A stretch of DNA of 64,000 nucleotides from Maledivibacter sp. (GTDB lineage Bacteria; Bacillota; Clostridia; Peptostreptococcales; Caminicellaceae). The translations under genes were made by a program, and so were the position numbers. The DNA is taken from positions 62,001-126,000 of the forward strand of contig JAOASB010000022.1 in the NCBI GenBank assembly GCA_025210375.1. Reading direction: 5' to 3'. The notes beneath the pieces are model-generated. The model worked only from the letters and a program-made list of their open reading frames with translations, did not search any database and was not told the DNA's origin. Shown here in pieces: positions 3,336 to 43,860 of the stretch. Position 1 is the stretch's first letter, and each line of letters starts with the position of its first letter.

Positions 3336-3383
3336 GGTATCAGTAAAGTTATATGCATATTTTATTTCAAAATTGATACTATT

Positions 3384-3509
3384 AATTGAGCAAATTGCAT
3401 AATTACAATTTTCAAAAACTTACTACTACATATAGTCTTAAATGCCCTAGAGTTATATCCCGGTTATTATGGAACTTAGCCAAATTAGAATTATGCAATT
3501 TCCTCAATT
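3384..3509. repeat. MITE-like inverted-repeat element, family A, copy 1
   Basis: The 220-bp gap between uppS and cdsA is mostly this element. GAGCAAATTGCATAATT at the left end is mirrored by AATTATGCAATTTCCTC at the right end (one mismatch). The right arm includes TTAGCCAAATTAGAATTATG, shared with the copy ending at 39474 (CTAGCCAAGTAAGAGTTATG). It has no coding capacity. Related copies lie at 39189-39249, 39316-39474 and 50175-50240. Confidence 0.7.
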
Positions 3510-20420: not shown

Positions 20421-20559
20421 ATCATTTGCAGGAAAATTAACCCATTTATAGTCATGCTATACTAAAACTTAAGATGAATTTTACTGAAATAATAAATGCT
20501 TCTATATTTTTTAGGAAAATTTATTAATCTTTAAAGTAGCATTATTTTATTTGGGCATA
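20421..20559. other. AT-rich gap between the rpsO terminator and the repeat element
   Basis: No gene found. The only structure noted is AATGCT/AGTAGCATT, which can pair weakly around 20495-20550. The rest is unassigned AT-rich DNA leading into the family B element. Confidence 0.5.
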
Positions 20560-20670
20560 GTATACAGAGATTCTAGTCAAAACTTTAACTTATAGATATC
20601 AAAGATCCCCAGAAACGTTGGATATTTCCATATCTATAAATTAAGATTTACTTAGAACTCTCTATATTAG
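20560..20670. repeat. MITE-like inverted-repeat element, family B, copy 1
   Basis: Left arm ATTCTAGTCAAAACTTTAAC..ATAGATATCAAAGATCC is the imperfect inverse of right arm GGATATTTCCATATCTATAA..AAGATTTACTTAGAACTC, with arms of about 50 bases around a short centre. Related copies lie at 23746-23850, 35346-35440, 43013-43086 (inverted) and 43751-43860. It is non-coding. Confidence 0.7.
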
Positions 20671-20781
20671 GTTTTTTTTATTACATAGTAGGAAATAATA
20701 TTTAAATGTAGAAATAAACTAATATACTTTATGTATATTAATAGTATTTAGACGCTAAGACGCTAGTGAAGGAGGTATAAA

Positions 20782-22884
20782 ATGGTTAAAGTTTTTGAAA
20801 TGGAACTTGCTGGTAGAACGCTTAAGGCGGAAATAGGTAAAGTAGCTGAACAAGCTAATGGGGCTGTAATGGTTAGCTATGGAGAAACGGTTGTTCTTGT
20901 CACTGCAACAGCATCTGACAAACCTAGAGAAGGTATTGACTTTTTTCCATTAAGTGTTGATTTTGAGGAAAGACAGTATTCAGTAGGGAAAATTCCAGGT
21001 GGATTTATTAAAAGAGAAGGAAGACCTACAGAGAAGGCTGTTTTAACTTCTAGACTAATAGATAGACCTATTAGACCTTTATTCCCAAAGGGATATAGAA
21101 ACGATGTACAGGTTATAGCAACTGTACTATCTGTGGATCAGGATTGTACTCCAGATATGGTAGCAATGATAGGTTCATCTATTGCTTTATCTATATCAGA
21201 TATACCCTTTGATGGACCAACGGGATCAGTTACAATAGGTTTAATTGATGGAGAATTTGTTGTTAATCCTAATGCGGAGCAAAGAGTGCTTACAGATATG
21301 CATTTAGTTGTTTCTGGTACAAAGGATGCTATCATGATGGTTGAAGCAGGTGCAAACATAGTTTCGGAAGATGTAATGCTTGATGCTATAATGTTTGCCC
21401 ATGAGCAGATAAAAAACATTATTGGCTTTGTTGAGAAAGTAGCTCAGGAAGTTGGTAAAGAGAAGCAAGAGGTTGTATTATTCAAAGTTGATGGGGATAT
21501 AGATAGCAAAGTAAGAGAATATGCAATTGAAAAAATGAAGGATGCAATAAGAACAGAAGAAAAGCAACAGCGTAATGAAAATATGGAAAATGTTAGAGTA
21601 GAAGTAGTTAATAAATTTGTTGAAGAATATCCTGAAAATGAAAAGGACATAAAGGTTTCTTTAGATGGTATTGTAAAAGAACTTGTAAGGCAAATGATTA
21701 CAAAGGATGGAATAAGACCGGATAATAGAAAACTAGATGAGATTAGAAAAATAACCTGTGAAGTAGGGATATTACCGAGAACCCATGGTTCAGGGTTGTT
21801 TACGAGGGGACAAACTCAAGCCCTTACTATATCTACTTTAGGAGCCCTTGGTGATGCACAGGTATTAGATGGATTAGGACTTCAAGAATCTAAAAGATAT
21901 ATGCACCACTATAATTTCCCACCATATAGTGTTGGAGAAACTAGATTTTTAAGGGGACCAGGCAGAAGGGAAATAGGACATGGTGCCTTGGCTGAAAGGG
22001 CATTGGAGCCTGTAATACCTTCAGAAGAAGATTTCCCCTATGCAATAAGATTAGTTTCAGAAGTACTTAGCTCAAATGGAAGTTCATCCCAAGCCAGTGT
22101 ATGTGGTAGTACATTATCACTTCTTGACGCTGGAGTACCTATAAAAGCTCCTGTAGCTGGTATAGCAATGGGATTAATTAAAGATGATGATAGAGTAGCT
22201 ATACTTAGTGATATTCAAGGTATGGAAGACTTTTTAGGAGATATGGACTTCAAGGTAGCTGGAACTGAAGAAGGAATTACAGCTATCCAAATGGATATTA
22301 AGATCCATGGAATAGATAAAGCAATTTTACAAAGAGCATTGGAACAAGCAAGACTTGGAAGATTATTTATACTAAATAAGATGAGCGAAGCAATTTCGGT
22401 TCCTAGGGATGAGATGTCTAAGTATGCTCCAAGAGTAATGAAGACAAAAATAGACCCTGAAAAAATTCGTGATATAATCGGACCAGGTGGTAAAACGATT
22501 AATAAAATTATTGCTGAAACCGATGTAAAAATAGATATTGAAGATAATGGCGATATATTTATTACTGCTAATAATATGGAGCAGGGCGATAAAGCACTAA
22601 AAATAATAGAAGAAATTGTTAAGGAAGTCGAAGTAGGAGAAATTTATGTAGGAAAAATTGTAAGGATAACTTCCTTTGGGGCATTTGTTGAAGTATTACC
22701 TGGAAAAGAAGGTCTAGTGCATATTTCTCAAATAGCAAAGGAACGTATTGGTAAGGTTGAAGATTTATTTAAAGTTGGCGATGAAATTGTCGTTAAGGTT
22801 ATAGAGATTGATAAGCAGGGTAGAATTAATCTTTCCAGAAAAGCTGCATTAGCTGCGGATGAAGAAAAGAATAAAAAAGCATAA
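20782..22884 (+). CDS. pnp: Polyribonucleotide nucleotidyltransferase (PNPase)
   Basis: Phosphorolytic 3'-5' exoribonuclease and part of the RNA-decay machinery, here with RNase Y at 37054. The 700-residue product has two RNase PH domains (the second with [16 protein letters not shown]), a helical linker, a KH domain ([17 protein letters not shown], about 570) and an S1 domain ([20 protein letters not shown], about 625). The start is set by AAGGAGGTATAAAATG. Confidence 0.98.
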
Positions 22885-22910
22885 ACCAAAAGGGTTTATG
22901 TTTTTTTTAT
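22880..22910 (+). terminator. pnp terminator, copy 1 of a duplicated pair
   Basis: CATAAACC pairs with GGTTTATG over a five-base loop, followed by eight T. The stem includes the pnp stop codon. A near-identical second copy follows at 22940-22970. Confidence 0.9.
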
Positions 22911-22915
22911 TCATC

Positions 22916-22934
22916 TTGTTGACAAAGTCAACAA
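22916..22934. repeat. 19-bp palindrome between duplicated terminators
   Basis: TTGTTGACAAAGTCAACAA is an 8-bp inverted repeat around a 3-base centre. The same 19-mer (one base different in the centre) is found at 30612-30630, also between two copies of a terminator. Confidence 0.85.
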
Positions 22935-22939
22935 CCTAG

Positions 22940-22970
22940 CATAAATCAAAGGGATTTATGTTTTTTTTAT
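22940..22970 (+). terminator. pnp terminator, copy 2 of a duplicated pair
   Basis: CATAAATC pairs with GATTTATG, followed by eight T. It matches copy 1 in stem, loop and T-tract apart from one compensated C-to-T/G-to-A stem pair and a small loop change. Confidence 0.88.
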
Positions 22971-23036: not shown

Positions 23037-23744
23037 ATGAAAAGAATAACTAAAACCTTTGTTATACCTGTTATTTTATTAGCAATTTTAACTTTTTCTT
23101 TTTTTATGTATAATGAAACCGTAATGTCTGTTTTTGAAAATGATGAATTAGTTCCATTACGAAAAGGAATTAATAAAGAATATATTGCATTTACATGTAA
23201 TGTGGACTGGGGTACGGAGTTTATTCAACCCATGCTTGATATTTTTGAAGAACATGACGTAAGAATAACTTTTTTTGTGTCGGGAAGATGGGCTAAAAAT
23301 AATCCCGATGTTTTAAAAAAGATTAAAGAAAAGGGTCATGAGATTGGTAATCATGGGTATGGACATAGAATGCACAGTAAAATTAGTGTAGAGGATAATA
23401 GGAGGGAAATAGAGAGTACCCATAATATTGTTAAGGATATACTTGGAGATAATATGATATATTTTGCACCACCCGCCGGCGACTTTAGTGATACAACATT
23501 AAAAGTAGCCAGGGAATTAGGCTACAGGACTATTTTATGGAATATAGATACAATAGATTGGCGAAAGGATTCTACTTGTGATAAAATAACAAGTAGAGTA
23601 TTAAAAAAGCCTTTAAAGGGCTCTATAGTTTTAATGCATCCTAAAAAGGAAACAGTTAAGGCTCTTGATTATTTGATTGAAGCAATAAAGGAAAAAAATA
23701 TAAAGGTCGGGACTGTGTCAGATGTATTAAAAGATAATGAATAA
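23037..23744 (+). CDS. Polysaccharide deacetylase family protein (YlxY/PdaB-like)
   Basis: Predicted exported or membrane-anchored de-N-acetylase of the NodB fold (carbohydrate esterase 4), probably acting on peptidoglycan. The 235-residue product has an N-terminal hydrophobic segment (about 8-25), the metal-site region FTCNVDWG in place of TFDDG, FVSGRWAKNNPD, and the metal ligands in NHGYGHRMHSK. It lies between pnp and the M16 protease, where B. subtilis carries ylxY, a deacetylase homologue. The NVDW variant means activity cannot be taken for granted. Confidence 0.85.
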   Translation: MKRITKTFVIPVILLAILTFSFFMYNETVMSVFENDELVPLRKGINKEYIAFTCNVDWGTEFIQPMLDIFEEHDVRITFFVSGRWAKNNPDVLKKIKEKGHEIGNHGYGHRMHSKISVEDNRREIESTHNIVKDILGDNMIYFAPPAGDFSDTTLKVARELGYRTILWNIDTIDWRKDSTCDKITSRVLKKPLKGSIVLMHPKKETVKALDYLIEAIKEKNIKVGTVSDVLKDNE

Positions 23745-23745
23745 A

Positions 23746-23850
23746 TATAGATATTCCAGTTAAACAGTTAATTTATACACATCAAAAATCCCTAGAATCA
23801 TCGGATGTTTTGAGCTGTATAAATTAAGTTTAACTTTTGGAAATCTATAT
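23746..23850. repeat. MITE-like inverted-repeat element, family B, copy 2
   Basis: ATTCCAGTTAAACAGTTAAT..ACACATCAAAAATCC on the left faces GGATGTTTTGAGCTGTATAA..AAGTTTAACTTTTGGAAATC on the right. Its inverse is a close match to 43013-43086. It fills the first part of the 348-bp gap before the M16 protease gene. Confidence 0.65.
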
Positions 23851-23925
23851 TGAGTTAGATTTAGAAAATTAATAGTTTTACTTGAATCTATATATAAACT
23901 AAATTATAATGATGTTAGCTTAGGC

Positions 23926-30590: not shown

Positions 30591-30607
30591 AAGCGCCTAG
30601 GGCGTTT
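30591..30607 (+). terminator. ftsK terminator, copy 1 of a duplicated pair (eroded)
   Basis: AAGCGCCTAGGGCGTTT: stem GCGCC/GGCGT over TAG, two bases after the ftsK stop. A more complete copy of the same sequence is at 30759-30777. Confidence 0.7.
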
Positions 30608-30611
30608 CAGA

Positions 30612-30630
30612 TTGTTGACAAGGTCAACAA
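30612..30630. repeat. 19-bp palindrome, second occurrence
   Basis: TTGTTGACAAGGTCAACAA, identical to the site at 22916-22934 except for the centre base. It directly follows terminator copy 1. Confidence 0.85.
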
Positions 30631-30635
30631 GATGG

Positions 30636-30758
30636 CAGGCTGCCTAAAAACCTGGAGTTCGAGGCGTGCTGAGAGCGAGAGGCCCCAGCGTATATAGACA
30701 TACGTAAGGGTTGTTGTTTGAAGCAACAACGAAGAAATTCGGGTTTTTAGGTAGCCTG
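30636..30758. ncRNA. Structured GC-richer element, possible RNA (class not recognised)
   Basis: A closing stem of about 17 pairs links 30636-30652 (CAGGCTGCCTAAAAACC) with 30742-30758 (GGTTTTTAGGTAGCCTG), one G-T pair. Inside are at least two further hairpins: CGTAT/ATACG (about 30689-30704) and GTTGTTG/CAACAAC (about 30710-30730), plus a purine-rich GAGAGCGAGAGGCC stretch. It is clearly richer in G and C than the surrounding DNA and has no open reading frame of note. It lies between two copies of the ftsK terminator. It may be a mobile or selfish structured repeat or a small RNA; I cannot name the family. Confidence 0.6.
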
Positions 30759-30779
30759 AAGCGCCTAGGGCGCTTTTAC
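30759..30779 (+). terminator. ftsK terminator, copy 2 of a duplicated pair
   Basis: AAGCGCC-TAG-GGCGCTTTT: a compact six-pair stem with a three-base loop and T-run. It carries the full form of the sequence seen in copy 1. Confidence 0.85.
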
Positions 30780-30820
30780 TGTTGATTGGCATAATGATTT
30801 TGTGGCAATAATTTAGCTAA

Positions 30821-30872
30821 AGATAAACAACCTCAAGGTTTAATATATTTTAAGTCTTAATGTTGTTTATCT
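30821..30872. repeat. Inverted-repeat element, family C, copy 1
   Basis: AGATAAACAAC at the left end and GTTGTTTATCT at the right end form perfect 11-base terminal inverted repeats around an AT-rich core. The right flank (CTATAAT followed by GAAAAT and TCTA) resembles that of copy 2 at 36886-36981. Confidence 0.55.
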
Positions 30873-30957
30873 ATAATAAATTTTTGAAAATATCTAGTTT
30901 CTTGATTGTAATAGAGGAGCTAGATATAGTGGTACTACTATAAAAGAATATAGAATT

Positions 30958-39170: not shown

Positions 39171-39188
39171 TATGTACATTTCTTTATT

Positions 39189-39249
39189 GAGTAAATTGCA
39201 TAAATATTTTCTATAAAAACCATCTACCTAAGAGTTATGCAATTTACTC
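39189..39249. repeat. MITE-like element, family A, short copy 2
   Basis: GAGTAAATTGCATAAAT on the left and AGAGTTATGCAATTTACTC on the right. It is a 61-bp version of the family A element, with the internal CTATAAAAACCATCTAC similar to the centre-left of copy 3 (CTGTAAAAACCATGTAC). Confidence 0.65.
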
Positions 39250-39315
39250 TTGCAATTTCCCCTACTTATAAGGAATAAAAAAATATACTTAGCACAAATA
39301 ATAATCTTAGGTATA

Positions 39316-39474
39316 GAGGAAATTGAATAATTACTTTCTGTAAAAACCATGTACTACATGTAGTTTTAAAATCCTTAAAGCTATACCATCAAATATGCTT
39401 ATATCTTAAGCAATTAAATATAGGATGATATTCCCATATGCAACCTAGCCAAGTAAGAGTTATGCAATTTCCTC
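39316..39474. repeat. MITE-like element, family A, long copy 3
   Basis: GAGGAAATTGAATAATT at the left end, GTAAGAGTTATGCAATTTCCTC at the right (last 17 bases shared with copy 1). Both ends are flanked by TATA, consistent with a short target duplication. At 159 bp it is the longest copy seen. Confidence 0.7.
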
Positions 39475-39560
39475 TATAGATAATCAGCATTGGCACTTAA
39501 AATAAATCTCATGGAAAATGATTAAGACCTTTACATTTTTTTATTTTCAATTTATTATAT

Positions 39561-43668: not shown

Positions 43669-43750
43669 GATTTTATAGTTAAAGAAATAGGTTTTTGTAA
43701 AAAGCTATTATAATAGAGTCAAATCTACATAATATCATTAGGAAAAATAA

Positions 43751-43860
43751 TTTATAGGGATTCCAGTCAAAACTTTAATTCACACATATCAAAACTCTCC
43801 CCAAAATGGAGTATTTCGATATGTATAAATTAAGATTTACATTGAACTCTTTATATTAGG
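43751..43860. repeat. MITE-like element, family B, copy 5 (aldo/keto reductase leader)
   Basis: ATTCCAGTCAAAACTTTAAT..CACATATCAAAACTC faces GAGTATTTCGATATGTATAA..AAGATTTACATTGAACTC. It lies between the MerR-type promoter and the gene and so is expected in the leader RNA. Confidence 0.7.

What the first reader, a model, noticed from the sequence alone, without database searches (positions are those of the whole stretch)
30591..30779. Full element: terminator / palindrome / multi-stem GC-rich RNA-like core / terminator after ftsK
The two terminator copies (AAGCGCCTAGGGCG) enclose the 19-bp palindrome and a core of about 120 bp with a 17-pair closing stem and at least two internal hairpins. It is clearly more GC-rich than this genome and carries no ORF. 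It looks like a complete version of an element whose reduced form is after pnp. Its compensated stem (G-T pair in the closing helix) suggests selection for RNA structure: a selfish structured RNA, a non-autonomous mobile element, or a 3'-end regulatory RNA.
Basis: partly seen in the sequence, partly recalled or inferred. Interest (0 to 1): 0.78.

Follow-up and report, generated by a model that had tools for sequence, protein, structure and literature searches.

The report
Jumping element that targets terminator hairpins
A 153-letter stretch of DNA that makes no protein, with about 85 copies in this clostridial genome and relatives across the phylum, jumps into the hairpins that end gene transcripts and leaves a full copy of the hairpin on each side, so it can probably spread without breaking the transcript ends it invades.

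Summary
The structure is real, but the two terminators are not part of the element. The element is 30607-30759 (TCAG...CTGA, 153 bp: a small hairpin plus a long hairpin). The genome holds 85 matches of at least 65 bits. Most copies sit between two copies of a terminator hairpin that differs from locus to locus: 129 of 149 copies against 4 of 2,966 re-paired controls. Related genomes show the uninterrupted site with one hairpin. So this is a mobile element whose insertion duplicates the whole target hairpin (16-35 bp, 38 bp in one relative), centred on the hairpin's dyad. The family occurs in 40 of 394 genomes of the order and 15 others across the phylum, has no Rfam match and shows strong covariation, with G-U far above A-C on one strand. 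Orientation to genes is random, which argues against a 3'-UTR regulator. The copy after pnp is a remnant. No mobilising gene was found; reverse transcriptase and Cas1 are each missing from several carriers. Closest known: YPAL of Yersinia and EFAR/Efa-1 of enterococci.

The parts
30591..30607 (.). left copy of the duplicated target: terminator hairpin after ftsK (boundary ambiguous by 1 nt with the element)
   Evidence: direct repeat with 30759-30775; at other loci the flanking hairpin is a different sequence
30607..30759 (+). the mobile element, 153 bp, TCAG...CTGA
   Evidence: boundaries from alignment of own-genome copies and their flanks
30608..30634 (+). hairpin 1 (contains the 19-bp palindrome 30612-30630)
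   Evidence: columns 6-11/19-24 of A2, with T-A to A-T compensations
30636..30758 (+). hairpin 2: long stem with conserved internal-loop motif (AGTTCRAGGCGYGCTG / CAGCAACGAAGAAATT) and inner hairpin CGTAT...ATACG
   Evidence: covariation
30759..30775 (.). right copy of the duplicated terminator hairpin; keeps the T-tract
22911..22938 (+). remnant after pnp: hairpin 1 only, between two terminator copies (22878-22910 and 22938-22970)
   Evidence: (family D17)

Best explanation
It is a small mobile element without protein genes that inserts into DNA hairpins, nearly always intrinsic transcription terminators. SHOWN by sequence: one 153-bp unit in about 85 copies; most copies flanked by two copies of a locus-specific hairpin; uninterrupted single-hairpin sites in relatives; amplification within genomes; selection to keep base pairing, strongest on one strand. 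INFERRED: an enzyme supplied in trans recognises the extruded or single-stranded hairpin (not its sequence), nicks both strands at points symmetric about the dyad near the hairpin base, inserts the element, and gap repair copies the whole hairpin onto both sides. One copy keeps the A-tract and the other the T-tract, so a terminator stays available for transcription from either side; this would explain why the insertion is tolerated. The G-U bias suggests that the + strand is folded as RNA or single-stranded DNA during mobility. The mobilising enzyme is not identified; a HUH (Y1/TnpA-REP-like) single-strand transposase is one candidate not excluded here, and DDE transposases and site-specific recombinases were not tested.
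For: Copy number. Locus-specific hairpin repeats abutting TCAG/CTGA; control by re-pairing flanks 129/149 against 4/2,966. Variable repeat length 16-35 bp, centred within 1 nt of the palindrome's dyad in 67 of 75. Same arrangement in more than 12 further genomes, up to 38 bp. Single-hairpin sites: L251 vs L277 with matching flanks on both sides, and L273; also L249/L272, L236/L279, L235/L275. Tandem H-E-H-E-H arrays: L037, L053, L210, triple in L333. Never between divergent genes: '-+' 0, '+-' 31, '++' 23, '--' 30. Covariation: 165 double-change cells against 51 shuffled, 0/500. G-U 163 vs A-C 16 in A1, 171 vs 16 in A2. Genome-specific clades and mixing of host families on the tree. Y1 present in all 13 element-bearing genomes used for the elimination test, RT and Cas1 in 8 of 13 each.
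Against: No mobilising gene found inside or beside any copy examined. Y1 genes are common in the order (219 of 394) and occur in genomes without the element; no Y1 clade is shared by all carriers. The overlap of repeat and palindrome is not perfect: the palindrome often extends 1-5 pairs beyond the repeat, and the correlation of the two lengths is moderate, 0.47. 20 of 149 copies show no clear repeat, which decay or recombination may explain. Transcription and movement were not observed directly.
Confidence: 0.86

Rival explanations
1. REPIN-like element moved by a resident TnpA-REP/RAYT (HUH Y1) enzyme acting on folded single-stranded DNA. This is a rival on the enzyme, not on mobility.
For: Y1 in all 13 carriers tested, including those without RT or Cas1; two-hairpin structure and strand bias.
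Against: No full element copy flanks the Y1 genes examined, apart from a partial match at one contig end, L197; no Y1 clade common to carriers; known IS200/IS605-type insertion gives no long duplication (own knowledge).
Confidence: 0.3
2. Miniature derivative of a DDE insertion sequence that makes long target duplications, such as the long-duplication group of the IS1202 family (16-28 bp).
For: Similar long duplications whose target is unknown in that family (PMC10132070).
Against: IS1202-family ends are TGT...ACA with 24-26 bp inverted repeats; here the ends are TCAG...CTGA with 4 bp; duplication here runs 16-35 bp and is centred on a hairpin. DDE families were not searched in the genome.
Confidence: 0.15
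3. Retroelement inserted by reverse transcription after terminators, in the manner of group IIC introns.
For: Group IIC introns insert at intrinsic terminators (PMC4424553); RNA-like covariation and G-U bias.
Against: Carriers G011, G073, G120, G133 and G160 have no RVT_1 match; no intron domain match in Rfam; group IIC insertion is not known to duplicate the hairpin (own knowledge).
Confidence: 0.07
4. A 3'-end regulatory RNA or terminator module kept for host benefit.
For: Position downstream of genes; conserved structure.
Against: Random orientation to the neighbouring genes (23 '++' vs 30 '--'); unrelated neighbouring genes; absent from relatives at the same site.
Confidence: 0.04
5. The element merely lies between two pre-existing tandem terminators.
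For: None beyond the arrangement itself.
Against: Relatives have a single hairpin at the same site; 36 of 81 equal-length repeat pairs are identical.
Confidence: 0.01

Closest known systems
YPAL / RU-2 repeats of Yersinia (De Gregorio 2006, as summarised in PMC2229807)
   Same: About 168 bp, internal inverted repeats, target duplications of variable length (3-26 bp), targets spanning or next to dyad symmetry, filled and empty sites known.
   Different: Here the duplication is the whole terminator hairpin, centred on its dyad, in most of 149 copies; ends TCAG/CTGA; host phylum differs; YPAL shows an open reading frame in some copies; sequence relation not tested.
EFAR / Efa-1 repeats of Enterococcus (PMC2267715: 163 bp, 65 copies, pair of adjacent stem-loops; PMC3733652 lists EFAR among MITEs; I take Efa-1 and EFAR to be the same family)
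   Same: Size, two adjacent hairpins, intergenic, many copies. From memory of the original abstracts (not held, not verified): 24-37 bp unrelated stem-loops serve as insertion targets, and units assemble in modules.
   Different: Reported from enterococci only, as far as I know; sequence homology with the present family could not be tested.
bcr1 of the Bacillus cereus group
   Same: About 155 bp (own knowledge), MITE-like, multi-copy, often transcribed within UTRs (PMC3446304).
   Different: From memory, a short fixed duplication (TTTAT) and not hairpin-targeted.
Group IIC introns
   Same: Target intrinsic terminators (PMC4424553).
   Different: Large ribozyme with RT; no hairpin duplication known; RT absent from some carriers here.
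REPIN/RAYT systems
   Same: Short palindromic intergenic elements in many copies; Y1 genes in the same genomes.
   Different: Different size and ends, no flanking Y1 gene seen, long target duplication.

Membership tests
Stem-loop-targeting palindromic repeats (YPAL/EFAR kind) | 150-170 bp, intergenic, palindromic, two adjacent hairpins (EFAR) | tested here: met
   153 bp in 119 of 149 copies; no conserved frame; two hairpins
Stem-loop-targeting palindromic repeats (YPAL/EFAR kind) | inserts at dyad-symmetric targets with variable duplication; empty sites exist | tested here: met
EFAR | sequence homology with enterococcal copies | not testable with these tools
   no EFAR sequence at hand; blastn against plasmids with the window element and L209, and against phages with L209, gave nothing
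MITE (classical) | 15-30 bp terminal inverted repeats shared with an autonomous transposon | tested here: inconclusive
   only TCAG/CTGA (4 bp) is terminal; no longer element with the same left end seen in G000; right-end-only copies were not searched for systematically
REPIN/RAYT | copies flank the RAYT gene | tested here: not met
   no full copy at the Y1 loci examined
Group IIC intron or derivative | intron RNA domains and RT partner | tested here: not met
   no Rfam match; five carriers without RVT_1
Casposon/Cas1-dependent element | Cas1 integrase in the genome | tested here: not met
   absent in G022, G095, G121, G133, G160
IS1202-family miniature element | TGT...ACA ends, 24-26 bp TIR | tested here: not met
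   ends TCAG...CTGA against PMC10132070
Known Rfam family | score at or above gathering threshold | tested here: not met
   window and 20 loci across the family

The most novel reading that the evidence does not exclude
A phylum-wide family of mobile RNA-like elements integrates by an undescribed, structure-directed reaction: an unknown enzyme recognises the shape of a DNA hairpin or cruciform of any sequence and cuts both strands near its base, so that the duplicated segment is the hairpin itself.
Probability: 0.5. Interest if true: 0.85.

Novelty: new variant of a known kind. Interest (0 to 1): 0.68.

Why it matters
It gives a sharp, testable rule for how a small element without genes can multiply to tens of copies with little harm to its host: it inserts where transcripts end and leaves a complete hairpin on each side. 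Duplication of hairpins of very different length points to an enzyme that reads DNA shape rather than sequence. The family spans many genera, is absent from Rfam, and offers hundreds of natural insertion events for finding that enzyme. It could also tie together the isolated reports of YPAL and EFAR repeats.

Tried and rejected
Rfam at gathering and permissive thresholds: nothing. Larger autonomous copy sharing the left end: only partial copies, read as deletion derivatives. Recurrent neighbouring gene as mobiliser: only ordinary genes. Y1 genes next to copies: none with a full copy; short motif matches there were chance. Single Y1 clade in all carriers: none. RT and Cas1 as universal mobilisers: not universal. 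Resemblance to integron attC (GCCTAAC/GTTAGGC) and to group II domain V, noticed by eye: dropped because these letters are not conserved while pairing is. Original YPAL/EFAR papers: not held.

Full report
Observation. The stretch 30591-30779 is as described. The conserved unit starts at TCAG (30607) and ends at CTGA (30759). Outside it no sequence is shared between loci in the alignment of flanks.

The terminators. At nearly every locus the unit is flanked by two copies of a hairpin that differs from locus to locus. Among 102 copies from three genomes, 85 have a clear repeat of 16-35 bp directly abutting the ends. Over 149 distinct copies, 129 pass a score that only 4 of 2,966 re-paired flanks reach. 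The right copy is followed by a T-rich stretch (T 0.53 against 0.33 background) and the left copy is preceded by an A-rich one (A 0.58 against 0.34), as expected of bidirectional terminators. The centre of the repeat lies within 1 nt of the palindrome's centre in 67 of 75 sites, while the length varies; the palindrome often runs on for 1-5 pairs beyond the repeat. Where the two copies differ, changes concentrate in the central 5 nt (31 of 445 positions) rather than in the stem (26 of 1,356).

Mobility. A DNA query of genes next to 11 copies in G085, G178 and G160 found orthologous loci in sister species. For L251 both flanks align (85% and 83%) with G175 and the relative has one hairpin, AAAGGACGTGGAAATTTTCCACGTCCTTT, and no element; the alignment with G053 also indicates one hairpin. 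L249 against G175, and L236 and L235 against G073, also show a single terminator. This is direct comparative evidence for insertion with duplication of the whole hairpin. Tandem H-E-H-E-H arrays (L037, L053; L210; a triple array in L333) are expected if a duplicated hairpin can serve again as target.

Setting. Elements lie between convergent genes or between genes in the same direction, never between divergent genes, and their orientation relative to genes is random. That fits terminator targeting and not a sense-strand 3'-UTR function. In the own genome about ten loci keep only the left hairpin or part of the unit; the copy after pnp in the window is one of these. They are read here as deletion derivatives, though a minimal mobile unit of hairpin 1 alone is not excluded.

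Structure. RNAalifold on 45 sequences from three genomes gives 39 pairs, 17 with changes on both sides. The count test gives 165 double-change cells against 51 in shuffles and at most 45 in slid controls. Pairs departing from Watson-Crick are G-U far more often than A-C (163 to 16 in A1, 171 to 16 in A2; in pairs that are mostly Watson-Crick 28 to 12 and 38 to 13), and the + strand folds more stably than the - strand. The folded strand is therefore most likely the + strand, as RNA or as single-stranded DNA; the data do not decide between these.

Distribution. The model from three genomes matches 40 of 394 genomes of the order (29 of 158 genera) and, besides the own genome, 15 of 398 genomes sampled across the phylum; weak matches in that list include more distant relatives without a clear hairpin 1. 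Flanking hairpin repeats were seen by eye in many of the stronger ones. Two named carriers are the MAGs JANQEZ01 (Clostridia bacterium PL23a_bin.55) and JAENZQ01 (Anaerovorax odorimutans BM5_bin.11). A tree of copies shows genome-specific expansions, and copies of host family f11 nested within those of f1 and of f3, which suggests horizontal transfer. Rfam has no match.

Enzyme. No copy examined contains or adjoins a plausible transposase. Of 13 carriers tested, five have no reverse transcriptase domain match and five have no Cas1, whereas all 13 have at least one Y1 gene. DDE transposases and site-specific recombinases were not tested.

Comparison. YPAL/RU-2 of Yersinia (168 bp, duplications of 3-26 bp, targets at dyad symmetry, empty sites; PMC2229807) and EFAR/Efa-1 of enterococci (163 bp, pair of adjacent stem-loops, 65 copies; PMC2267715; PMC3733652) are the same kind of thing. 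I recall that EFAR was reported to use unrelated 24-37 bp stem-loops as targets, but the papers are not held, so this is a lead and not a test. If confirmed, the present family is a clostridial member of that kind, and the label 'new member' would fit as well as 'new variant'; what is new here is the hairpin-duplication rule shown over 129 copies, the phylum-wide family, the strand-specific covariation, and the exclusion of two enzyme classes as universal mobilisers.

Noticed in passing
L104:1480-1800 (G000:C52:241062-241338): Two long hairpins of different subtypes lie head to head around one shared hairpin 1, with one terminator hairpin pair outside: a modular compound element.
   Followed up: partly
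L333:1440-2100 (G582): Triple tandem array H-E-H-E-H-E-H with nearly identical units.
   Followed up: partly
L102:1440-1720 (own genome): An element sits in an AT-rich palindrome (GCATAATAGCAATTATGC) without a T-tract that resembles another intergenic repeat of this genome (window 3382-3426, 39183-39227), so the target may be any hairpin.
   Followed up: no
window 3382-3508 and 39183-39477: A second repeat family (AAATTGCATAA...GAGTTATGCAATTTCCTC) with several copies.
   Followed up: no
window 20557-20671, 23740-23854, 43747-43860: Third repeat family, about 115 bp, AT-rich, three copies in the window at 65-90% identity.
   Followed up: no
L211 (G121): An element lies between two unrelated terminator hairpins, possibly a recombinant of two copies.
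   Followed up: no
L219-L231 (several genomes): More distant relatives share the internal-loop motif of hairpin 2 but lack a clear hairpin 1 and flanking hairpin repeats, sometimes in tandem (L222, L226).
   Followed up: partly
window 30818-30875: A further AT-rich inverted repeat (29-nt arms, 79%) between the element and the next gene.
   Followed up: no
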